Origin: an uncultured Mycoplasmatota bacterium
GTDB taxonomy: Bacteria > Bacillota_I > Bacilli_A > RF39 > UBA660
Reading direction: 5' to 3'
Length of the DNA stretch: 33,189 nt
NCBI GenBank assembly: GCA_948466735.1
Contig: CAOKBR010000009.1
Span: forward strand, 1-33,189
Below the pieces are notes generated by a model. It saw nothing but the letters and a program-made list of their open reading frames with translations, was not told the DNA's origin and did not search any database. Position 1 is the stretch's first letter. Each line of letters starts with the position of its first letter. Position numbers and translations under genes: made by a program. Of this stretch, positions 214 to 30,098 are shown one piece after another.

Positions 214-2664
214 ATGCTTTTCTTAACGGGAATTATTTTGCTATATACATCACACGCTTTATTTACTGTACCTACAGTAGAAAAATCTGCGATTACCATC
301 AAAGCAGGAACCATGGATCCAACGATAAAAGTAGATGACGTTGTTACCAATAAATTAACAGTACCTGCGAAAGGAGAAAAAGTGTTTACTGTAACTTTTG
401 AAAATTTGAATCCTGTTACAGGAGAATTTCTATTTTATTATATAGAAAGTATTCCTAATGATGTATATATGGGATATCTAGAAAATGAAGGATTTGATGT
501 GCCAGCTTCTACCAATATTAAATTATCTCAAAGTGCTAAACAGACATATTCCATAAAAGTTAAGAATGATACTACTAAAAGTCAAACAATTACCTTAGGT
601 TCCTTAGGAGGATTAGAATTTACTACTTTGGAACTTCCTTCAAATACAAGGTTTATTTCACCGTATTGTTTTTCGTTTGATTATTCAACAGGAACAATTG
701 AGGATTATGCAAAAGATGAAATTTGTCCAAAGAATGTAATTATACCTGATAATATCAATAATGTAAATGTTGTTTCCATTGGAGAATATGCATTTCGTTC
801 TAATCAATTAACAAGCGTAACAATTCCAAATAGCGTAACTAATATTGAAAAAAGAGCATTTTTAAATAATCAATTAACCAGTGTAGAAATACCAAATAAT
901 GTAACAATGATTGGAGAATATGCATTTGGTAACAATAAATTAACAAGTGTAAAAATAGGAGATAGTGTAACGAGTATTGGAGATTATGCATTTACTAATA
1001 ATCAATTAACGAGTGTGGAAATACCAAATAGTGTAAAATACCTTAGTGGATTTGCTTCTAATCAATTAACCAATGTAGTGATACCAAATAATGTAATATC
1101 TATTGGATATAGTGCATTTTCTTATAATCAATTAACAAGTGTAACAATTCCTGATAGTGTAACAACAATTGGAGATTATGCATTTACTAATAATCAATTA
1201 ACGAGTGTGGAAATACCTAATAGTGTAATAAGTATTGAAAGAGGATCATTTACTAATAATCAATTAACAAGTATAGAAATACCTGATAGTGTTACTAGTA
1301 TTGGACAAAGTGCTTTTGAAAGTAATCAATTAGCAAGTGTAACAATACCAAATAAAATAACAACCATTAAAAATTCTGTATTTAAAAATAATCAATTAAC
1401 GAGTGTAGAAATACCAAATGGTGTAACAAGTATTGAAGGTTCTGCCTTTTTAAATAACAAATTGACAAATGTAATAATTCCAAATGGTGTAACAAGAATT
1501 GGCGATAAGGCTTTTAAGACAAATCAATTAGCAAGTGTAACAATACCAAATAGTGTGACAAATATTGAATATTCTGCTTTTGAAAGTAATCAACTAACTA
1601 GTATAAAAATACCAGATGGTGTGACATATATTGCAAGTTCTGTATTTCGCGATAATAATTTAACAAATGTAGCAATTCCAGATGGTGTGACAACAATTGG
1701 AGATAATGCATTTTCTTCTAATCAATTAACAGGTTTAATTATTCCAAATAACGTTACAAGTATTGGAGATTATGCATTTTATAGTAACAAATTAACAAAT
1801 GTAACTATTCCGAATAAGGTAACATCAATTGGAGAATACGCACTTTCTTTTAATCAATTAACGAGTGTGACAATTCCAAACACTATCAAAACAATTGAAA
1901 GGGGAACATTTTCTAATAATCAATTAGCAAGTGTAACAATACCAAATAGTGTAACAACGATTGAATCTTCTGCATTTGACTATAATAGATTAACGAGTGT
2001 AGAAATACCAAATAGTGTGACAACAATTGGATCTTCTGCATTTAGATTCAATCGATTAGAACAGGTAATAATTCCAAATAGTGTAACATCTATTGATTAT
2101 TCTACATTTGAATATAATGAATTAATAAGTGTGACAATTCCATATAGCGTAACATCGATTGGATCTTCTGCATTTCGTTCCAATAAGCTTACAAATATAA
2201 TAATACCAAATACTGTAAAAAGCATAGGAAAAAACGCATTTGAGAGAAATGAATTAACTAATGTAACAATTCCAAATAGCATAACTTATATAAATGAGTA
2301 TGCATTTGCAAAAAATAAATTAACAAAAGTAAATATTCCAAATAGTGTAACAATTATTGGAAAAGAAGCATTTTTTGATAATCAATTAACAAGTGTAGAA
2401 ATACCAGATAGTGTAACAAGTATTGGATTGTCCGCATTTGAAAACAATAAAATAACAAGTATAACGATAGGAAGGGGGGTAACAACAATAGAGAATTATG
2501 CATTATATAAGCACTCTTCTTCAAATTCAACTTTAGAAAAGATTATTAATAAAACAGGTCGAGAATTTGATTGGCAAGCGATTACTAGAGGTAGTAGTGC
2601 AGCAACTTTTGTAACAGGAGTTATTCCTCATGCTAATGGAGATATCACGGTTACTAGTGAATAG
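214..2664 (+). CDS. BspA-type leucine-rich-repeat surface protein, membrane-anchored at the N-terminus
   Basis: Large extracellular protein built mainly of LRR_5 (BspA-type) repeats, a family linked to adhesion and surface interactions. In order: an N-terminal hydrophobic segment, a beta-rich domain (about residues 25-145), roughly 27 repeats of 22 residues with the pattern IPxSVTxIGxxAFxxNQLTS, and a short non-repeat tail containing FVTGVIP. No LPXTG-type sorting signal is seen, so anchoring is probably by the N-terminal segment. The start is uncertain: ATG 214 falls inside the hydrophobic segment, while the frame stays open upstream to 46 and encodes a Lys- and Cys-rich stretch that looks like a cytoplasmic tail (NPISDKDKKNKSCSF, about 115-159). 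No ATG, GTG or TTG lies in that extension, although a purine run AGGGGAGGGGG sits at 91-101. The true start may be a rare codon, or the 5' end may carry a small indel. Confidence 0.85.
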   Translation: MLFLTGIILLYTSHALFTVPTVEKSAITIKAGTMDPTIKVDDVVTNKLTVPAKGEKVFTVTFENLNPVTGEFLFYYIESIPNDVYMGYLENEGFDVPASTNIKLSQSAKQTYSIKVKNDTTKSQTITLGSLGGLEFTTLELPSNTRFISPYCFSFDYSTGTIEDYAKDEICPKNVIIPDNINNVNVVSIGEYAFRSNQLTSVTIPNSVTNIEKRAFLNNQLTSVEIPNNVTMIGEYAFGNNKLTSVKIGDSVTSIGDYAFTNNQLTSVEIPNSVKYLSGFASNQLTNVVIPNNVISIGYSAFSYNQLTSVTIPDSVTTIGDYAFTNNQLTSVEIPNSVISIERGSFTNNQLTSIEIPDSVTSIGQSAFESNQLASVTIPNKITTIKNSVFKNNQLTSVEIPNGVTSIEGSAFLNNKLTNVIIPNGVTRIGDKAFKTNQLASVTIPNSVTNIEYSAFESNQLTSIKIPDGVTYIASSVFRDNNLTNVAIPDGVTTIGDNAFSSNQLTGLIIPNNVTSIGDYAFYSNKLTNVTIPNKVTSIGEYALSFNQLTSVTIPNTIKTIERGTFSNNQLASVTIPNSVTTIESSAFDYNRLTSVEIPNSVTTIGSSAFRFNRLEQVIIPNSVTSIDYSTFEYNELISVTIPYSVTSIGSSAFRSNKLTNIIIPNTVKSIGKNAFERNELTNVTIPNSITYINEYAFAKNKLTKVNIPNSVTIIGKEAFFDNQLTSVEIPDSVTSIGLSAFENNKITSITIGRGVTTIENYALYKHSSSNSTLEKIINKTGREFDWQAITRGSSAATFVTGVIPHANGDITVTSE
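736..2511 (+). repeat. About 27 tandem 66-bp leucine-rich repeats
   Basis: The coding sequence repeats every 66 bp (22 residues), with the motif AATCAATTAAC-AGTGT recurring near each unit boundary. Units are diverged at the nucleotide level but strict in length. One unit near 1018-1077 is two residues shorter (VEIPNSVKYLSGFASNQLTN) and lacks the GxxAF signature. Such arrays can gain or lose units by recombination. Confidence 0.85.
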
Positions 2665-7219: not shown

Positions 7220-7256
7220 ATCTTATATGATTAAACTATTCAAGGAGGTATACATC

Positions 7257-8276
7257 ATGAAGAAAAAAAGAACTTGTATTGAATTGTTTGCAGGTGCTGG
7301 TGGACTTGCATTAGGATTGGAAAAAGCAGGTTTTGAAGAAGTTGGATTAGTTGAATTTGATAAAACGGCATGTGAAACATTAAGAATAAATAGACCAAGG
7401 TGGAATGTAATAGAAGAAGATATTGTAGAAGTATCTAAAAGAGATTTGTTAAAAGAATTCAAGTTAAAGTCTAGAGAATTAGATTTATTATCCGGTGGTT
7501 ACCCATGTCAATCTTTTAGTTATGCTGGAAAAAAATTAGGACTTGAGGATGTAAGAGGAACAATGTTTTATTATTATGCAGAGTTTATTAAACAACTACA
7601 ACCAAAAATGTTTTTAGCAGAAAATGTTAAGGGGTTAACTACACATGATGGAGGAAAAACTATTCAAACAATGATTGATGTATTTGAAGAATTAGGATAT
7701 AAAGTTGAATGGAAAGTGTTAAATGCATGGGATTATGGTGTGGCAGAAAAAAGACAACGAGTCGTAATAATTGGAATTAGAAATGATTTAATAGATAAAG
7801 TTAAATTTGAATATCCACTTCCACATGAATATAAACCAGTTCTGAGAGATGTTCTTCAAAATGTTCCAGATTCTGTTGGAGCAAAATATCCAGAAAATAA
7901 AAGAAAAGTATTTGATTTAGTTCCACCTGGAGGATATTGGAGAGATTTACCAGATGATGTCGCCCGTGAGTATATGAAGTCATGCTATTTTATGGGTGGA
8001 GGAAGAACTGGTATTGCTAGAAGATTATCATGGGATGAACCATCATTGACTTTAACTTGTTCTCCTATGATGAAACAAACGGATAGATGTCATCCAGATG
8101 AAAGTAGACCATTTACAACAAGAGAATATGCAAGAATACAATCCTTCCCAGATGAGTGGAATTTCGCTGGTAAAATGGGAGATATTTATAAGCAAATTGG
8201 AAATGCAGTTCCAGTTAACTTAGCAAAATGTGTTGGAGAATCAATTATGAATGCATTGAATGGAGGTAATGTTTAG
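7257..8276 (+). CDS. DNA (cytosine-5) methyltransferase of a type II restriction-modification system
   Basis: Transfers a methyl group from S-adenosylmethionine to C5 of cytosine in the recognition site, protecting host DNA. The 339 aa contain the motifs in canonical order: I (ELFAGAGGLALGLEKAGF, residues 9-26), IV with catalytic Cys84 (GGYPCQSFSYAGKK), VI (ENVKG), VIII (KRQRVVIIG), the variable target-recognition region, IX (REYARIQSFPDEW) and X (YKQIGNAVPV). ATG 7257 is chosen over 7227 because AAGGAGG precedes it and the shorter product starts just before motif I. The stop TAG is immediately followed by the endonuclease ATG, so translation is probably coupled. By its partner, the target is likely GGNCC-like; that is inference. 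Confidence 0.95.
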   Translation: MKKKRTCIELFAGAGGLALGLEKAGFEEVGLVEFDKTACETLRINRPRWNVIEEDIVEVSKRDLLKEFKLKSRELDLLSGGYPCQSFSYAGKKLGLEDVRGTMFYYYAEFIKQLQPKMFLAENVKGLTTHDGGKTIQTMIDVFEELGYKVEWKVLNAWDYGVAEKRQRVVIIGIRNDLIDKVKFEYPLPHEYKPVLRDVLQNVPDSVGAKYPENKRKVFDLVPPGGYWRDLPDDVAREYMKSCYFMGGGRTGIARRLSWDEPSLTLTCSPMMKQTDRCHPDESRPFTTREYARIQSFPDEWNFAGKMGDIYKQIGNAVPVNLAKCVGESIMNALNGGNV

Positions 8277-9032
8277 ATGTTGGAATTAGATTTTATTTCA
8301 AGAGAAGATTTTAAAAATCATGTTGCTAATACAATTAAAACTTATGATAATACATTGAAAAGTATTGACCTTCAAAGTTTTAATAGTAACATAATAGACC
8401 CTATTAAATTAACTTTTGATAGCAAGGTTTATAGAAAAAGTATTGAAGAAGTAATTGAAAATGAACTTGTTAGACAAAGGGATAAAACAAATACAAATGC
8501 AATCGGTTATTTTCATCAAAATCTTTTTAAATACATTAAAAATTGTGAGGTTCCACAGGCGGGATTTGATGTTATATATACTAAACCAGATGGCAGTAAA
8601 ATTTATGTAGAGATGAAGAACAAACATAATACAATGAATTCTTCTTCATCACAAAAGACATATATGAGAATGCTTAATCAGATTTTAACAGAAGATAATT
8701 GTAATTGTTACTTGGTTGAAATAATTGCCAAAAGAAGTCAGAATATTACATGGGCAGTATCACTTGATTCGGACAGAGTATCAAACGATAGAATTAAAAG
8801 AGTATCAATAGATAAATTTTATGAAGAAGTGACTGGCAATAAAAATGCATTCTACCTTATTTGTAAAGCCTTACCAACAATAGTAGATGAAATCATCAGT
8901 GAAAATTCTGGAATGAGTGTTGAAAAAGATTCTGTTATTGAAGAGTTAAAAGAAAAAAATCCAGATGTTTTGAAATCCTTATATTTACTTGCATTTAGTA
9001 CATACGAAGGATTTAAAGAAGAATGCGAGTAA
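8277..9032 (+). CDS. Type II restriction endonuclease, Eco47II family
   Basis: Cleaves unmethylated recognition sites. The 251 aa contain the family's signature region VEMKNKHNTMNSSSSQKTYM (residues 111-130) and a PD-(D/E)XK core with Asp98 in AGFDVIYTKPDG, Glu112 and Lys114 in YVEMKNK. Known Eco47II/Sau96I-like enzymes cut GGNCC; the exact specificity here is inferred from the family only. The gene starts directly at the base after the methyltransferase stop with no spacer, a layout that delays endonuclease synthesis relative to the methyltransferase. Both catalytic proteins look intact. Confidence 0.9.
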   Translation: MLELDFISREDFKNHVANTIKTYDNTLKSIDLQSFNSNIIDPIKLTFDSKVYRKSIEEVIENELVRQRDKTNTNAIGYFHQNLFKYIKNCEVPQAGFDVIYTKPDGSKIYVEMKNKHNTMNSSSSQKTYMRMLNQILTEDNCNCYLVEIIAKRSQNITWAVSLDSDRVSNDRIKRVSIDKFYEEVTGNKNAFYLICKALPTIVDEIISENSGMSVEKDSVIEELKEKNPDVLKSLYLLAFSTYEGFKEECE

Positions 9033-9412
9033 TAACTTTAAAACAACCTTGGGCATCACTTGTTGCAAATGGATATAAGATATATGAATTTAGAAAAATG
9101 AATTATTCATACAGAGGTAAAATTTTAATTCATGCTGGTAAGGGTATTGATAAAGAGGCCATGAATAGAGTTAAAAAACTAAATTTAGAATATCCTCAAT
9201 CACAGATTGTAGCAGAAGTTGAGATTGAAGATGTGATTGAAGTAGATGAAGATTTTAATAAGTACATAAACAACTTGAACTCGATAGTGTATGGGAAAAA
9301 TAAAATTCGTGGTGGATATGCTTGGAAGTTAAAGAATATTAAAAGGATAGAATCTTCTAAAAAAATAAATGGAAAGCAAGGAATATGGTATATAGAACTA
9401 GAACAACTTTAA
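9023..9412 (+). CDS. ASCH-domain protein co-transcribed with the restriction-modification genes
   Basis: A 129-aa protein with the ASCH/PUA-like signature: LKQPWASLVANGYKIYEFRK, then YRGKILIHAGKG, ending in GIWYIELEQL. ASCH domains bind RNA or modified nucleotides, and one characterised group (YqfB) is an N4-acetylcytidine amidohydrolase. ATG 9023 overlaps the endonuclease stop by 10 bp, so it is translated from the same message. Third genes of this type beside methyltransferases may read or process modified bases, but nothing in the sequence proves that here. Confidence 0.85.
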   Translation: MRVITLKQPWASLVANGYKIYEFRKMNYSYRGKILIHAGKGIDKEAMNRVKKLNLEYPQSQIVAEVEIEDVIEVDEDFNKYINNLNSIVYGKNKIRGGYAWKLKNIKRIESSKKINGKQGIWYIELEQL

Positions 9413-24269: not shown

Positions 24270-25241
24270 TTAAAATATATCGTCTAAAGTTGTATTTTTA
24301 CTTGCCTTTATAATTTTATTAATGTTTGTGTACACTCTTCCTTGAGGCGCTTTATTCGGATTTTTTAATGAAATTGGGTGTTTTAATTTAATGGCTTTAT
24401 TTTTAAAATAAATAATATATTTTCCTGTATCTTCATAAGGCTCTATTTTATCAATTTCGGCATAGTAAGTAATTGCTTTTATCGGATTTTTTTGGTATAC
24501 TGCGATATATTTTAAGGAATCTATTCGATTAATGCCAATACTTACAGCAAACCATCGATTATTTTCGATAAATTCTTCCTGGAAGCCATCTAAATATGCA
24601 GCAACCACGATGGTATTTAAATCGTCTAAATTATCTTTAGTATTTATTAATAAAGAGGGTTGATCACTTACTTTATCAAATAGATAAATTGCTTCATGTT
24701 TATCATTTATATATTTTTTGAATTCTAAAATTTCAATATCAAAAGCGAAACAATTTTTTAAATCTTGCAATCTATAGTCAGCATCATCAATAATAATATA
24801 GACACCTAATTTATTATTGATCATAATACTAGTAAGTAAATCATCAATATTACGAAATTTATTATTTTGACAAAATGTATCAACATCATAATGAATCATA
24901 TTTAAATATTCAATCACGGTTTCTTTAATTTTATCTAGCGAATCTTTATAATTTAAAAAGAAATTTGTTAACTGGGGAGCAATATGTTCTTTAATCCCAT
25001 GACTTCTTAATTCGTTTTCTACCAAATATAATCTTGGTTGAGATAAATCTAATAAATATCCATCAGGAATGGTGCCATCCTGTCTTTTATTGGGTTTAAG
25101 ACGTTTTTTGATATCAATATAAATCATGTTCTCCCCAAAAATTTCTCTATCATGAGCAATGACATCTTTTTCAAAGGTATTTTCATCGCCTTCATAATTA
25201 TATTCTTTATATTCTATGTGGTCTTTAATAATATACTTCAT
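24270..25241 (-). CDS. Hypothetical protein with a possible PD-(D/E)XK-type nuclease core
   Basis: A 323-aa soluble protein that I do not recognise with certainty. Residues about 50-95 (GTIPDGYLLDLSQ, PRLYLVENELRSHG, HIAPQL) resemble the nuclease pattern of Asp in a PDG turn, followed by a beta strand with a Glu-x-acid/Lys pair and a helix with Q. Here the expected ExK is ENE, so the catalytic Lys would be missing or displaced. The C-terminal third is beta-rich (YIAVYQKNPIKAITYYAEI, YIIYFKNKAIKL). GGAGGAA precedes the start. It is the last gene of the operon starting at 26283. Confidence 0.65.
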   Translation of the reverse strand: MKYIIKDHIEYKEYNYEGDENTFEKDVIAHDREIFGENMIYIDIKKRLKPNKRQDGTIPDGYLLDLSQPRLYLVENELRSHGIKEHIAPQLTNFFLNYKDSLDKIKETVIEYLNMIHYDVDTFCQNNKFRNIDDLLTSIMINNKLGVYIIIDDADYRLQDLKNCFAFDIEILEFKKYINDKHEAIYLFDKVSDQPSLLINTKDNLDDLNTIVVAAYLDGFQEEFIENNRWFAVSIGINRIDSLKYIAVYQKNPIKAITYYAEIDKIEPYEDTGKYIIYFKNKAIKLKHPISLKNPNKAPQGRVYTNINKIIKASKNTTLDDIF

Positions 25242-25491: not shown

Positions 25492-25839
25492 TTACTCTTT
25501 TGGTAAATCAATTTCACTAAAAGCCCCTAAATCATAAGTAGTATAACCTAATTTATTTAAAGAATCCCAAGCGATTTGACTCCTTCTACCACTTTGGCAA
25601 TAAACTAAAATAGTTTTATGATTATCTAAATTAATATTTTCACTAATTTCATCATAAGGAATATTAATAGCCCCCTTAATGTGAGATATTTCATATTCTT
25701 CTTTGGTGCGAACATCAATAATGACATAATTTCCTTTTTCTATAATACTTTGAACACTATTTTCCAATTTTTCATTTTCTCCATTAGCACATCCAGTTAA
25801 TAAAATACTACTAATCACTAATATTAAAATTTTCTTCAT
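25492..25839 (-). CDS. Lipoprotein with rhodanese domain
   Basis: A 115-aa secreted rhodanese. The signal peptide MKKILILVISSILLTGC gives lipidation at Cys17 (lipobox LTGC). The domain follows with VIIDVRTKEEYEISHIKGAINIP (described here by its ends, VIIDVR and HIKGAINIP) and active-site Cys81 in LVYCQSGRRSQIAWDSL. Rhodaneses transfer sulfane sulfur; an external, membrane-tethered form may act on extracytoplasmic thiols or thiosulfate. ATG 25839 is preferred because AGGAG (minus strand, 25849-25845) precedes it. The start lies inside the 3' end of the DUF3781 gene (29-bp overlap). Confidence 0.88.
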   Translation of the reverse strand: MKKILILVISSILLTGCANGENEKLENSVQSIIEKGNYVIIDVRTKEEYEISHIKGAINIPYDEISENINLDNHKTILVYCQSGRRSQIAWDSLNKLGYTTYDLGAFSEIDLPKE

Positions 25840-26092
25840 CTTTACTCCTAAACGGATGGACAGTGATAATGGTGTAACTACTAGCATTTATGGTAATCAC
25901 ATAGCCACTAGTTAAAACATAATAGTTTTTTCCTTTTCTTATCACTTGTCTATCTTTTTTTTGTAATAATTTTTTGATATATGTAACAACATCATCATTT
26001 TCTAACTTCATATTTGTTTTGATTCGCTCTATTCCCATCTTAGTAGAATGAACTTTATCAATTAAAAAATCAAACTCTTTTTCTTCTATCAT
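25811..26092 (-). CDS. DUF3781 domain-containing protein
   Basis: A 93-aa protein matching DUF3781 over its whole length: LIDKVHSTKMGIERIKTNMKL (identified by VHSTKMGIERIK), then DDVVTYIKKLL, VIRKGKNYYV and GYVITINASSYTIITVHPF. Function unknown; small, cytoplasmic. Its ATG overlaps the stop of the zinc-ribbon gene (TAATG), and its 3' end overlaps the lipoprotein start, making the three genes a tightly packed translational unit. Confidence 0.85.
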   Translation of the reverse strand: MIEEKEFDFLIDKVHSTKMGIERIKTNMKLENDDVVTYIKKLLQKKDRQVIRKGKNYYVLTSGYVITINASSYTIITVHPFRSKDEENFNISD

Positions 26093-26283
26093 TAGATAAT
26101 TAAATCCTGTGGTTTTTTAACATATGATCGAACAATAGTTCCGCATTCTAAACAAATGACAAAATATACTGCTTGACCTTTAAGGGTAAACATTTTATTA
26201 GGTCCAATGGTCGCATATCCATCTTGTCTACCTTCTACAAATTTTTCTTTCCCACAAAAGGGACATTTTAACTTTTTTTCCAT
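26092..26283 (-). CDS. Small zinc-ribbon protein
   Basis: A 63-aa protein with two CxxC knuckles, Cys7/Cys10 (LKCPFCGKEK) and Cys44/Cys47 (VICLECGTIV), separated by FVEGRQDGYATI, a spacing typical of a small structural zinc ribbon. It has no other domain. AAGGAG precedes the start, and an extended -10 lies about 25 bp upstream. First gene of the operon. Confidence 0.8.
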   Translation of the reverse strand: MEKKLKCPFCGKEKFVEGRQDGYATIGPNKMFTLKGQAVYFVICLECGTIVRSYVKKPQDLII

Positions 26284-26336: not shown

Positions 26337-26963
26337 CTATTCCTTAACAATAACTTCAAGCATTCCAATTAAATGAGAACATTGAAAAGAGTCGATAATA
26401 ATTCCTTTTATTGAGTAAAAATCAAAGTTAGCTCCATATATATCACAAGTAGAAAAATCAACACCTTTTAATTTGGTTTTTAAAAATTCACATCCATTTA
26501 ATTTCGTATCTAAAAATTCAATATCTTTTATTTCACTTTCTAAAAAAGTAGAATCAGTTAAGGAACTATTTTCAAATGATACTTGACTAAACTTTGTATT
26601 AGAAAAGTTATTGTACTCTATAAGACAATTTTCAAAACGTACATCTTTTAAGGATCCTTGAATAAAGGAGGTTCCCATCATTTTACAATTTTTAAATACT
26701 ACGCGACTAATTAGTTGTTCATCAAAAACTTTATTGGATAAGTCACATCCATCAAAGATAACATCTACTAAATCTACACGGGATAATTCAATTTTAGAAA
26801 AGTCAATTTTATCAAAAACGCATCCATCAAAAGTGTGGTTTTCGATTAAAATGGGCTCGTTAATATTTTCTTTAAAATGGAAATTGGCAAATTCATCTAG
26901 TTGGTAAGCCTTTAATAGGTTTTCATCTTCCAAATAATTAATTTTAGGGGGATTAATTTTCAT
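26337..26963 (-). CDS. Pentapeptide-repeat protein
   Basis: A 208-aa protein made largely of A(D/N)LxX-like pentapeptides (FDGCVFDKIDFSKIELSRVD, then VRFENCLIEYNNFSNTKF and so on from about residue 45 to 185), which fold as a right-handed quadrilateral beta helix. Qnr and McbG members of this fold mimic DNA and protect gyrase, but the fold alone does not show that role. The start overlaps the MutS-like gene's end by 11 bp, so it is co-translated with a DNA-related ATPase, which makes a DNA-mimic role worth testing. Confidence 0.85.
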   Translation of the reverse strand: MKINPPKINYLEDENLLKAYQLDEFANFHFKENINEPILIENHTFDGCVFDKIDFSKIELSRVDLVDVIFDGCDLSNKVFDEQLISRVVFKNCKMMGTSFIQGSLKDVRFENCLIEYNNFSNTKFSQVSFENSSLTDSTFLESEIKDIEFLDTKLNGCEFLKTKLKGVDFSTCDIYGANFDFYSIKGIIIDSFQCSHLIGMLEVIVKE

Positions 26964-28725
26964 TACTTTTTCCTTCCTCCTTGATAAGATTCATCATTTT
27001 CATTAAATATTTTGCATTAGTGGTTTTAGAACGTCCTTTTCTTATTTGATAATCAAAGATAATTTTATCTTTTTTGTAGGTTTCCATAAAATGATAGTTA
27101 ACAATATTGTTCATATCACAAAGTTCAAAATCATGAGTTGTTAAGAAGACAATACAATTAAGATGGGTTAATTCTTCGATAATTTTCTTAGCACCAAATA
27201 TTCTATCATTATAATTGGTTCCTTTAAAGATTTCATCGACGAACACGATAGAGGATTGATCATTATTTCTACAAAAATCAAGAACTTCTTTCATTCTTAA
27301 AAGCTCCCCGTAAAAGGTAGATATGCCATGTACTAAATCATCTTTAACATTGATGGAGGTAAATATTTGATTGACTATTGGAATATTAAACTCTTTAGCA
27401 TTTACATAACTTCCTAAATAACCTAACACTAAATTTACCCCGATCATTTTCATAAATGAAGTTTTCCCACTCATATTAGAGCCAGTGATAATATTGATTT
27501 CCTTTTTTGTAGCAAAAGAATTTGAAATACATTTTTTCTCATTTAATAAAGGATGATATCCATCTATAATAGACATTTCTAAATTGGAATTTATATTGGG
27601 AAAAGAATGCACTTCTTTTACTAAGCCAATGGTAGATAGACTAATTAACACTTCAATTTTTTCTAATGAAGTGATACTTTTTTCTAAGTTTTCTTTGTGC
27701 TCTTTTAAATGATTTCGATAGGAAAATAAAACGACAAAATTTAAGGAGAAGAAAAGGTTACCTAGTAAGTAAGATAGAAAATTTAATCGATAACTATCTA
27801 AATTTGCTAAGTGATTTAGTCTAGTTAAAACATCAATTCCGTTGTTAATATCATTTTGTAATTTTAACATCAACTTACTATTAAAGTGTTGCTTACTAAC
27901 AAATTGATAAGTAGAAGTTAACTGTTTAAAAAGGAAAGTACAATTGGTAATGGCATCGAATTCTCTTTGATAGAGATGTTGATAGAAGTATGAGGCAATA
28001 ATTTGTAAAATAGCTAATCCCATAAAAAGAGAAAGCGGAACTATTTTTAATAGACTTAAAATAAAAAGAGTAATGGTAAGTAAAGATAGAAATAAGGAAC
28101 ATAATAATTCCATTGGTTTTTTCCTATCACTTTCATCAAAAAAGTATAAATAAGAGGTAAAATCTTCTTTTTGAACATGAGAAATTCTACTTAATATTTC
28201 CTGAAATCCAAGAATAAAATCAATGTTATTCGTTAATTCTAAAATGGCTTCTTGGTTTTGATGAATTCTCTTTAAAGAGATATTTTGTAATTGAAAACTT
28301 TTAAATAGACGCTTTTTTCCTCCCAGGCTACTAGTAAAATTAAGGTAGGTAAAAAGGGAGTTCTTTCCTGTTAAATTTAATTCTTCTAGAAAATGTTTTT
28401 CATCATCCATTAAGTCATCACTTTCTAATTTCCAGTTTTCATTACATCGATTGATATAGCGATTGATAATTTCGATATACTTTTTAGCTTTATTTAATAT
28501 GAATTTGATATTTTTATGTTTAGCGACTAAAAAAAGAAAAGTAATCGCTAGAAAAAGTAAGATTCCTTTAAAGAAAACGTTAGAATATTGTATATTCATG
28601 AAAATAAGAAAAATAATTATTCCAAATAAGATTAAGCGTAGAGTCGATATTTTTTGTGCTTTTTTGGTATACGCTAAAACAATTTTTTCTTGTTCTTTTT
28701 TAATTTTTAATAGTTCTTCATTCAT
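26953..28725 (-). CDS. Membrane-anchored MutS-family ATPase
   Basis: A 590-aa protein. Walker A is GSNMSGKTSFMK (415-426), Walker B with DE at 497-498 is SIVFVDEIFKGTN, and the MutS motif ISTFYGELLRMKEVL lies between them, followed by TTHDFEL. The N-terminal half has hydrophobic segments at about 28-68, 207-250 and 318-336 that replace the mismatch-recognition and connector domains of MutS. A lever/clamp-like helical region (about 100-200 and 260-400) links them. This is the uncharacterised MutS-related group anchored to the membrane, not the canonical mismatch-repair MutS. The start has AAAGGAGA and lies 11 bp after the upstream stop. Confidence 0.9.
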   Translation of the reverse strand: MNEELLKIKKEQEKIVLAYTKKAQKISTLRLILFGIIIFLIFMNIQYSNVFFKGILLFLAITFLFLVAKHKNIKFILNKAKKYIEIINRYINRCNENWKLESDDLMDDEKHFLEELNLTGKNSLFTYLNFTSSLGGKKRLFKSFQLQNISLKRIHQNQEAILELTNNIDFILGFQEILSRISHVQKEDFTSYLYFFDESDRKKPMELLCSLFLSLLTITLFILSLLKIVPLSLFMGLAILQIIASYFYQHLYQREFDAITNCTFLFKQLTSTYQFVSKQHFNSKLMLKLQNDINNGIDVLTRLNHLANLDSYRLNFLSYLLGNLFFSLNFVVLFSYRNHLKEHKENLEKSITSLEKIEVLISLSTIGLVKEVHSFPNINSNLEMSIIDGYHPLLNEKKCISNSFATKKEINIITGSNMSGKTSFMKMIGVNLVLGYLGSYVNAKEFNIPIVNQIFTSINVKDDLVHGISTFYGELLRMKEVLDFCRNNDQSSIVFVDEIFKGTNYNDRIFGAKKIIEELTHLNCIVFLTTHDFELCDMNNIVNYHFMETYKKDKIIFDYQIRKGRSKTTNAKYLMKMMNLIKEEGKSNEN

Positions 28726-28736
28726 AAATTTCTCCT

Positions 28737-29396
28737 TTATTTATCAATACTAACCACATAGTATTTACTATTTTTTTGATTGCTTATATCCCAATTTTTC
28801 CATTTAATTTCATAAATTTTAGTTCCTAAATCAATATATTTTTTGTGTTTATCTTTTCCCGTTGGTTTATAAATTTTCCCTGTCAGTGCTTCTTTTTGAT
28901 TTGGAAAATGACGAAAATATTTAAAAATGTAGTTTTTATCCTTTCTACCATGGTGAGATCCTGTGTGATATGTTTTATCCATAGTGGCTACAACGGCATA
29001 AGTTTTTGTAAAATTGGCATCTTTTAATACTTGCATAAACTTAATATCAAGCACAAATTGATACATTTCTTCTGGTGTTTTTCCATTCATTGGAAATTTT
29101 AATTCAATAGCAAACTTTTTACTTTTATTCTTTTTATTATAAATATAAATGTCCATCTCTTTTTTTAATGATTCTTCTAATGGATTACTTTTTTGATAAG
29201 TAATTCCTAATTTTTTAATATTACGTTCAAATTCAATCTTATCATTAGGGAACTTTTTTCTTAAAAATAGTCCGAGTTCTAATTGAAAACTAATTTCATT
29301 ATATAGTTCAATTTGTTCATCTTTTAAATAATGATTTAAAAATTCCTCTAATACTAGATTAAAATCTGCATCTTCAAAATTTAATGTTTTTTCCAT
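28737..29396 (-). CDS. PD-(D/E)XK nuclease-like hypothetical protein
   Basis: A 219-aa protein with a candidate restriction-endonuclease core: Glu in NDKIEFERNIKK, Asp in KKEMDIYIYNKK, and the strand FAIELKFPMNGKTPEEMYQF giving E-x-K. A helix with Gln/Asp follows and could complete the fold. I cannot name the family. The protein has no membrane segment. It is the first gene of an operon with the MutS-like ATPase and the pentapeptide-repeat protein, and a good promoter lies upstream, suggesting a DNA-processing role (inference). Confidence 0.7.
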   Translation of the reverse strand: MEKTLNFEDADFNLVLEEFLNHYLKDEQIELYNEISFQLELGLFLRKKFPNDKIEFERNIKKLGITYQKSNPLEESLKKEMDIYIYNKKNKSKKFAIELKFPMNGKTPEEMYQFVLDIKFMQVLKDANFTKTYAVVATMDKTYHTGSHHGRKDKNYIFKYFRHFPNQKEALTGKIYKPTGKDKHKKYIDLGTKIYEIKWKNWDISNQKNSKYYVVSIDK

Positions 29397-29456: not shown

Positions 29457-29482
29457 AAAGAAAAAAGCAATGGAGGTTGCTT
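29457..29482 (-). terminator. Terminator after the 205-aa gene
   Basis: AAGCAA (29465-29470) and TTGCTT (29477-29482) form the stem; on the minus strand it is followed by a T run (29464-29459). The stem overlaps the stop codon of the upstream gene. Confidence 0.65.
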
Positions 29483-30098
29483 ACTTTTTAGGGTTTATTT
29501 TATAATGTAAACTTTTTTCCCTGGTACAGTTACGATCAAAGTGAGCCTTCATTTCTTCTTGTATTTTTCTTTGCTTATTTTTTGAATAGATAAAAGAAAG
29601 TCGATTTAAGATATAAGCTTCACTCATAGAAAGGTCTTGATACGCTATGATGTAGTGGGTAAGATATTCGTATAACTCTTGACTAGATAGGGTAGTTAAG
29701 AGTTTTTTTAATTTATTATTTGCTAAAGTAAGCTCTTCTTTGGTAAGTTTTTTTTGCATTAAGGTTAAAAGAGGGTGCTCTATCATATAGCTATACACAA
29801 ATAGATATTCTTTTTCACTACAAGTTTCTATGTGGTAAGCGTATTTGGTAAAAAGAAGAGCATACTCTTTTTGCTCTTGTAATTCTTCTAGTTCCTTAAC
29901 TTCTTCTCTAGATAATTGATCAGTAGGAAGAGAATTTAGATAAGAATATCTTTCTTTTTCCAATTCGCTTTCATAATTTAACCATTTTTCAAATTCAATA
30001 TCTGGAGTGATATTTGATAAAAAATTTCTTGTTAATACTTTCATTTTTTCTTTACCTTTAGAAAATTCTTTTGCTAAAGTGCCATTAATATTTATCAT
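29481..30098 (-). CDS. Hypothetical helical protein of 205 aa
   Basis: Soluble, rich in Glu, Lys, Leu and Tyr, and probably all-helical, with segments such as SREEVKELEELQEQKEYALL and LTKEELTLANNKLKKLLTTL. I see no catalytic or metal-binding motif and do not recognise the family. ATG 30098 has AGAGGTAG at good spacing on the minus strand; a Met inside (MKVLTRNF, residue 19) is an alternative start. It lies 89 bp downstream of the XRE-type regulator gene in the same direction and may belong to its transcript. Confidence 0.65.
   Translation of the reverse strand: MININGTLAKEFSKGKEKMKVLTRNFLSNITPDIEFEKWLNYESELEKERYSYLNSLPTDQLSREEVKELEELQEQKEYALLFTKYAYHIETCSEKEYLFVYSYMIEHPLLTLMQKKLTKEELTLANNKLKKLLTTLSSQELYEYLTHYIIAYQDLSMSEAYILNRLSFIYSKNKQRKIQEEMKAHFDRNCTREKSLHYKINPKK

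What the first reader, a model, noticed from the sequence alone, without database searches (positions are those of the whole stretch)
26337..29396. Operon of nuclease-like protein, membrane MutS-like ATPase and pentapeptide-repeat protein
Three genes under one strong promoter, the last two overlapping, combine a putative PD-(D/E)XK core, a MutS ATPase whose recognition domain is replaced by membrane helices, and a fold known for DNA mimicry. Such a set resembles a multi-gene defence or DNA-surveillance system more than ordinary repair. This is a hypothesis from domain content only.
Basis: inference. Interest (0 to 1): 0.6.

Follow-up and report, generated by a model that had tools for sequence, protein, structure and literature searches.

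The report
Local nuclease, membrane-MutS, Qnr-like gene cluster
Three neighbouring genes (a predicted DNA-cutting enzyme, a membrane-bound relative of the repair protein MutS, and a Qnr-like protein of the kind that shields DNA gyrase) really do sit in one operon-like array, but the trio is found together in only one genus; the cutting enzyme alone has relatives that keep turning up beside anti-phage defence genes.

Summary
In detail: three minus-strand genes at 29396-26337, the last two overlapping by 11 bases. (1) 28737-29396 is a PD-(D/E)XK nuclease fold (AlphaFold2 on 14 relatives: pLDDT 82.5, alpha-beta-beta-beta-alpha-beta core; E40, D82 and E98-x-K100 kept in every relative covering them), in a family absent from Pfam, NCBIfam and PADLOC. 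(2) 26953-28725 is a membrane MutS ATPase keeping only MutS core domain III and ATPase domain V; domains I, II and the DNA clamp IV are missing. Its family is widespread (Bacillota, Bacteroidota and others). (3) 26337-26963 is an EfsQnr-like pentapeptide protein, common in this bacterial family (47 of 145 genomes). Membrane-MutS neighbourhoods look like housekeeping. Nuclease relatives, in contrast, lie beside CRISPR-Cas, GmrSD-like, type I and IV restriction, ThsB, BnzB and candidate-defence genes at 9 of 13 loci. Best reading: a genus-level assembly of three independent genes, one a probable defence-associated nuclease of an undescribed family. No three-gene system is shown.

The parts
28737..29396 (-). 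Gene 1: PD-(D/E)XK nuclease-like protein, 219 aa, undescribed family
   Evidence: ORF; no Pfam/NCBIfam hit and no significant PADLOC hit (only Csm3 at E=0.57); AF2 pLDDT 82.5, pTM 0.83 with core H34-48 E52-59 E80-87 E94-100 H108-126 E131-138; 14-row family alignment
29097..29105 (-). ExK (E98-L-K100) of the predicted PD-(D/E)XK active site; partners D82 (29151-29153) and E40 (29277-29279)
   Evidence: E40, D82, E98 and K100 conserved in every family member that covers them
26953..28725 (-). Gene 2: membrane-anchored MutS-type ATPase (MutS-TM), 590 aa
   Evidence: MutS_V 1.2e-32; no MutS_I, II or IV; hhalign to MutS1 domains III and V, probability 99.9
28522..28650 (-). N-terminal pair of TM-like helices (residues 26-68)
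   Evidence: Kyte-Doolittle; similar positions in most of the family
27970..28107 (-). TM hairpin (about residues 207-252) inserted in MutS domain III
   Evidence: Kyte-Doolittle; appears as an insertion relative to MutS1 in hhalign
27019..27492 (-). MutS domain V ATPase (residues 412-569): Walker A GSNMSGKT at 27460-27483, Walker B D497-E498, STFYGEL signature, H531
   Evidence: Pfam match; motifs invariant (one S/G change in Walker A) in the alignment of 4 relatives
26337..26963 (-). Gene 3: EfsQnr-like pentapeptide-repeat protein, 208 aa, start overlaps gene 2 by 11 nt
   Evidence: Pentapeptide_4 6.8e-29; PDB best hit 2W7Z EfsQnr 1.7e-19; 29% identity over 196 aa
29418..29446 (-). Candidate sigma-70-type promoter TTGTTA-17-TATAAT upstream of gene 1
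   Evidence: Consensus match 10 of 12, not above chance density
25492..26283 (-). Possible continuation of the transcription unit: Zn-ribbon (26092-26283), DUF3781 (25811-26092), rhodanese lipoprotein (25492-25887)
   Evidence: ORFs and Pfam; conserved order in the sister genome; no minus-strand terminator-like site

Best explanation
A genus-level, probably co-transcribed assembly of three independently distributed genes, not a dedicated three-part system. Gene 1 is a PD-(D/E)XK nuclease (shown: fold model and conserved catalytic set) of an undescribed family whose other members are mostly cargo next to restriction, CRISPR and other defence genes; it most likely cuts nucleic acid of incoming elements as a defence or restriction accessory (inferred). 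Gene 2 is a membrane-anchored MutS-type ATPase that keeps only the core/lever (III) and composite ATPase (V) domains (shown by profile alignment); all DNA-contacting domains are gone, so it most likely uses ATP-driven opening and closing of a dimer at the membrane on a non-DNA partner (inferred, by analogy with other repurposed MutS ATPases). Gene 3 is an EfsQnr-like DNA-mimic that most likely protects or modulates DNA gyrase (inferred from family).
For: Trio only in G000 and G104 of one genus. Of 80 membrane-MutS loci from the genome-contig scan only the same-genus one has the nuclease and pentapeptide; none of the 14 other nuclease loci has a MutS-TM or this pentapeptide, and the pentapeptide has MutS-TM beside it only in the same two genomes among 37 loci. 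Nuclease fold; best structural matches are mostly PD-(D/E)XK nucleases. Defence neighbours of nuclease relatives: GmrSD; MTase_I, ThsB, PDC-S11, HEC-05; Cas1/Cas2/Csn2, type IV mREase, BnzB; 196 PADLOC families hit among 106 neighbours, against 30 among 111 neighbours of membrane-MutS. MutS-TM architecture. Qnr-like.
Against: The order and tight spacing are conserved between two species at 70-73% identity, so some selection for co-expression is possible. The operon genes diverge faster than the chromosomal genes further downstream (83-95% at 18.5-24 kb), which would fit an adaptive role. The defence comparison is not matched: six nuclease loci come from a viral/mobile contig collection, several share one integrase hotspot, and the windows were +/-6 against +/-3 genes. 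Functions of all three proteins are inferred.
Confidence: 0.68

Rival explanations
1. A true three-gene defence system: the nuclease is the effector, the membrane MutS-type ATPase the sensor/switch, and the pentapeptide DNA-mimic an immunity or regulatory factor.
For: Tight operon-like packing with an overlap; conserved trio in two species; nuclease family is defence-associated elsewhere.
Against: No recurrence outside one genus in any of the three single-gene surveys; MutS-TM lives in housekeeping neighbourhoods and lacks DNA-binding domains; the pentapeptide is a common Qnr-like gene.
Confidence: 0.09
2. The nuclease is an anti-phage gene that acts alone; MutS-TM and pentapeptide are only promoter-sharing passengers. 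This is a sharper version of the best explanation, not exclusive of it.
For: Nuclease relatives are single genes next to diverse defence systems (Cas locus, GmrSD, type I and IV R-M, ThsB, BnzB) with no fixed partner.
Against: Two loci pair it with a DUF4268/PDC-S11 protein (L139, L159), so it may need partners; it could also be a mobile-element maintenance or homing nuclease, since it often directly follows serine recombinases.
Confidence: 0.35
3. A DNA-topology / repair operon: MutS-like ATPase, gyrase-protecting pentapeptide and nuclease jointly process DNA damage at the membrane.
For: In 7 Anaeroplasmataceae-type loci a RecX-like gene immediately precedes MutS-TM (RecX named from sequence, not from a profile search); Qnr-type proteins act on gyrase (PMC8145042).
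Against: MutS-TM has no domain I, II or IV; the cell has its own MutS1; no recurrent link between the three.
Confidence: 0.08
4. The three ORFs are misassembled or adjacent by chance in a metagenome bin.
For: Draft assembly of 58 contigs.
Against: Same order in an independent MAG of another species, with most proteins at 61-95% identity over a block of more than 10 kb.
Confidence: 0.01

Closest known systems
PD-(D/E)XK nuclease superfamily (restriction endonucleases, RecU/Hjc, Cas4-like)
   Same: alpha-beta3-alpha-beta core, D...ExK active site plus a helix glutamate; Foldseek top matches include BstEII, Hjc, RecU-type PrfA, SwaI, EcoRV; BFVD best match is a PD-(D/E)XK nuclease at 5.8e-4
   Different: No sequence match to any Pfam, NCBIfam, PADLOC or PHROGs family for the window protein and no PDB structure below 1e-3; additional C-terminal part with short strands
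MutS1 / MutS2 ATPases
   Same: Domain V with all ATPase motifs; core domain III alignable to MutS1 (hhalign 99.9%)
   Different: Domains I, II and clamp IV absent; no Smr domain; two N-terminal TM helices and a TM hairpin inside domain III; the own genome has a separate MutS1
KamC-type MutS-related ATPase (NCBIfam NF052383)
   Same: ATPase half matches at 6.7e-32, 110.9 bits; an example of a MutS-type ATPase named for a non-DNA role
   Different: Far below the family cut-off (300 bits); no aminomutase genes seen nearby
EfsQnr (2W7Z) and Gram-positive Qnr-like pentapeptide proteins
   Same: 208 aa, continuous repeats, alignable over residues 11-205 at 29% identity; best PDB hit
   Different: Gyrase protection untested; below every NCBIfam Qnr cut-off
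Hailong (HalA pentapeptide effector)
   Same: Pentapeptide repeats (NF051894, 47.5 bits)
   Different: Cut-off is 250 bits; 208 against 338 aa; no HalB nucleotidyltransferase recognised next to it

Membership tests
PD-(D/E)XK nuclease superfamily | alpha-beta-beta-beta-alpha-beta core | tested here: met
   AF2 model of 14-row alignment, pLDDT 82.5, pTM 0.83, elements in that order
PD-(D/E)XK nuclease superfamily | Conserved acidic D, ExK and upstream helix E | tested here: met
   E40, D82, E98, K100 kept in all rows that cover them
PD-(D/E)XK nuclease superfamily | Significant structural match to a solved member | tested here: inconclusive
   PDB best E 0.013 (BstEII), none below 1e-3; BFVD best 5.8e-4, probability 1.00, a PD-(D/E)XK nuclease
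PD-(D/E)XK nuclease superfamily | Metal-dependent nuclease activity | not testable with these tools
   needs protein
MutS1 mismatch repair protein | ATPase domain V | tested here: met
   PF00488 1.2e-32
MutS1 mismatch repair protein | Mismatch-recognition domain I and connector II | tested here: not met
   No PF01624/PF05188 hit; residues 1-120 carry TM helices and do not align to MutS1
MutS1 mismatch repair protein | DNA clamp domain IV | tested here: not met
   No PF05190 hit in the protein; own-genome six-frame search with PF05190 rings only at MutS1 on contig C7; clamp segment falls in a gapped stretch in hhalign
MutS2 | C-terminal Smr domain | tested here: not met
   No Smr hit in Pfam scan; protein ends soon after domain V
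Qnr / EfsQnr-like pentapeptide proteins | Pentapeptide repeats over most of the length, about 200-215 aa | tested here: met
   PF13599/PF00805 hits; alignment to EfsQnr residues 11-205; no structure modelled
Qnr / EfsQnr-like pentapeptide proteins | NCBIfam Qnr cut-off score | tested here: not met
   NF033086 42.7 bits against cut-off 240
Qnr / EfsQnr-like pentapeptide proteins | Protection of gyrase from quinolones | not testable with these tools
   needs assay
Known anti-phage systems (PADLOC) | Match of the operon's proteins to defence models | tested here: not met
   Genes 1-3: no significant PADLOC hit
Multi-gene defence system | Recurrent co-occurrence of the components in unrelated genomes | tested here: not met
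   Trio only within one genus
Hailong | HalA above cut-off with adjacent HalB | tested here: not met
   47.5 bits against cut-off 250; no nucleotidyltransferase hit among neighbouring genes scanned

The most novel reading that the evidence does not exclude
The trio is a young, lineage-specific defence unit in which a membrane MutS-type ATPase stripped of DNA-binding domains gates a PD-(D/E)XK effector nuclease, with a Qnr-like DNA-mimic as the self-protection factor.
Probability: 0.08. Interest if true: 0.7.

Novelty: new member of a known kind. Interest (0 to 1): 0.36.

Why it matters
It removes a tempting three-gene defence hypothesis and leaves two testable leads: an undescribed PD-(D/E)XK family that recurs as cargo beside many different defence systems, and a widespread membrane-anchored MutS ATPase family without any DNA-binding domain whose function appears unstudied in the papers I could search.

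Tried and rejected
Profile searches of gene 1 in Pfam, NCBIfam, PADLOC and PHROGs gave no family for it. The first AF2 job with only two rows failed (pLDDT 35) and was discarded. Relatives of gene 1 in the phage and plasmid collections: none, with three different queries. First viral-contig scan with the two-row alignment found nothing; the broader alignment found six, and a third scan only the same six. Rhodanese as a partner of MutS-TM: near only 4 of 77 loci, so treated as lineage synteny. Hailong and Qnr as names for gene 3: below cut-offs. Literature searches for a membrane MutS family found nothing relevant.
Full report
OBSERVATION. The window is contig C9 of a 1.06-Mb draft genome; its relatives in named records are uncultured Bacilli MAGs. 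On the minus strand lie three ORFs, 28737-29396 (219 aa), 26953-28725 (590 aa) and 26337-26963 (208 aa), with an 11-nt gap and then an 11-nt overlap and good ribosome-binding-site-like sequences before genes 2 and 3. They are genuine genes: a second MAG of the same genus (G104, which matches named contig CASRZP010000032.1) has all three in the same order at 70, 73 and 72% identity, inside a syntenic block of more than 10 kb. A promoter-like TTGTTA-17-TATAAT sits at 29446-29418, but the region as a whole has no excess of such sites. No terminator-like site was found on the minus strand after gene 3, and a Zn-ribbon gene, a DUF3781 gene and a rhodanese lipoprotein gene follow closely, also in G104, so the transcription unit may be longer than three genes.

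GENE 1. No family in Pfam, NCBIfam or PADLOC recognises it. Relatives were collected from whole genomes and IMG/VR contigs. In the 14-row alignment E40, D82, E98 and K100 are kept in all rows that cover them. AlphaFold2 on that alignment gave pLDDT 82.5 and pTM 0.83, with helix 34-48, strands 52-59, 80-87 and 94-100, helix 108-126 and strand 131-138, the order of the PD-(D/E)XK core with D82 and ExK on the second and third strands. Foldseek against PDB has no match below 1e-3, but PD-(D/E)XK enzymes dominate the better-probability hits (BstEII, PrfA/RecU, Hjc, SwaI, EcoRV); some long, low-probability DNase I matches are also listed and I take them as spurious. Against predicted viral proteins the best match is a PD-(D/E)XK nuclease (5.8e-4, probability 1.00). 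The fold is therefore supported; activity is inferred.

CONTEXT OF GENE 1 RELATIVES. The family is rare (3 of 145 genomes in the bacterial family; 3 of 395 in the class; 3 of 299 and 3 of 391 genomes sampled around a genome labelled Lachnospiraceae, some of them fragments). Outside the genus, 13 loci with readable neighbours were examined (L126, L127, L135-L140, L153-L155, L159, L160); a further one, L012, ends at a contig end and could not be judged. Nine of the 13 have a recognised defence gene nearby: type II-A Cas1/Cas2/Csn2 (L126), GmrSD pairs (L135 by Pfam; L136 by the matching PADLOC models), PDC-S11 (L139, L159), a type I methyltransferase (L140), HEC-05 (L154), a type IV methyl-directed restriction enzyme (L155), ThsB (L159) and BnzB (L160). 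In L154, L155 and L160 the nuclease itself is a fragment. L127, L138 and L153 show none, and L137 is ambiguous (a phage-type helicase with a partial HEC-05 match). Pooled, 106 neighbours of the nuclease hit 196 PADLOC families at 1e-10, while 111 neighbours of membrane-MutS hit 30. Caveats: six loci come from a collection of viral or mobile contigs, several share one serine-recombinase hotspot, many PADLOC models are redundant, and the neighbour windows differed. Of the seven loci taken from ordinary genomes, five still have defence neighbours.

GENE 2. It matches MutS domain V (1.2e-32) with its ATPase motifs intact, and only a trace of domain III at the Pfam level. Profile-profile alignment of 75 family members with 15 MutS1 rows covers MutS-TM residues 121-583 against MutS1 domains III and V (probability 99.9, E 1.5e-36); the clamp region of MutS1 falls in a gapped stretch and the TM hairpin near residue 207 is an insertion. 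Pfam domains I, II and IV are absent, and a six-frame search of the genome with the clamp model rings only at the separate MutS1 gene. TM-like segments recur at about residues 25-70, 207-255 and often 316-334 in most members. The family reaches Erysipelotrichia-type and other Bacillota, Anaerovibrio-type Selenomonadaceae, Bacteroidota and more (80 loci), but only 4 of 145 genomes of the window's own family at E<=1e-40. Its neighbours are lineage-specific housekeeping genes, for example a secA-prfB-yitT-recX-like series, uppP/bacA, or a dicarboxylate symporter (the names secA, prfB and recX are my reading of the sequences). [quoted passage not shown]

GENE 3. The best structural relative by sequence is EfsQnr, 2W7Z (1.7e-19; 29% identity over 196 residues). 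EfsQnr is a Qnr-like protein that contributes to fluoroquinolone resistance of Enterococcus faecalis (PMC8145042). Relatives at 1e-12 occur in 47 of 145 genomes of the window's family, in varied neighbourhoods. Of 37 pentapeptide loci (some genomes counted twice, as short and long stretches) only the two of this genus carry MutS-TM next door.

CO-OCCURRENCE. In the family-level sample the nuclease and MutS-TM share two genomes, both of the one genus; MutS-TM occurs without the nuclease in G050 and G123, and the nuclease occurs without MutS-TM in G092. Among 80 MutS-TM loci the nuclease and this pentapeptide appear next to it only in the same-genus one.

EXPLANATION. The most economical account is an operon-like assembly, formed once and kept in one genus, of three genes with separate histories: a probable defence-associated nuclease of an undescribed family, a membrane MutS-type ATPase of unknown but probably non-DNA function, and a Qnr-like gyrase-interacting protein. 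Shown: gene structure, fold and catalytic residues of gene 1, architecture of gene 2, family of gene 3, lack of recurrence. Inferred: co-transcription, nuclease activity and defence role of gene 1, membrane location and non-DNA role of gene 2, gyrase action of gene 3.

NOVELTY. New members of known kinds: the nuclease family is new to the libraries searched but its fold is not; the MutS-TM family is large and was not described in the papers I could search. The trio as a system is not supported.

Noticed in passing
L135-L140, L159 (nuclease relatives): The nuclease gene repeatedly follows a set of serine recombinases, with a different defence or unknown gene directly downstream (GmrSD pair, DUF4268/PDC-S11, SIR2-like gene then HsdM): looks like a cargo slot of a mobile element that collects defence genes.
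   Followed up: partly
L139:5869-7561, L159:1749-3448: Nuclease directly followed by a DUF4268 / PDC-S11 protein in two loci: a possible two-gene unit.
   Followed up: no
L033, L035, L040, L041, L046, L057, L060: A RecX-like gene (named by eye) immediately precedes the membrane-MutS gene in one lineage.
   Followed up: no
window 7227-9412 (+): Ordinary type II restriction-modification set: C5 cytosine methylase (8e-88), Eco47II-type endonuclease (1.9e-88) and an ASCH-domain protein.
   Followed up: partly
window 24270-25241 (-): 323-aa protein without significant Pfam, NCBIfam or PADLOC match, 81% identical in the sister species; 'PDGYLLD...LYLVENEL' looks PD-(D/E)XK-like by eye.
   Followed up: no
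window 214-2664 (+): 816-aa protein of tandem leucine-rich (BspA-like) repeats of about 23 residues, by eye.
   Followed up: no
window 29481-30098 against L009:1562-2633: The genes between the HTH regulator and the operon differ between the two species of the genus: a small variable spot directly upstream of the nuclease.
   Followed up: partly
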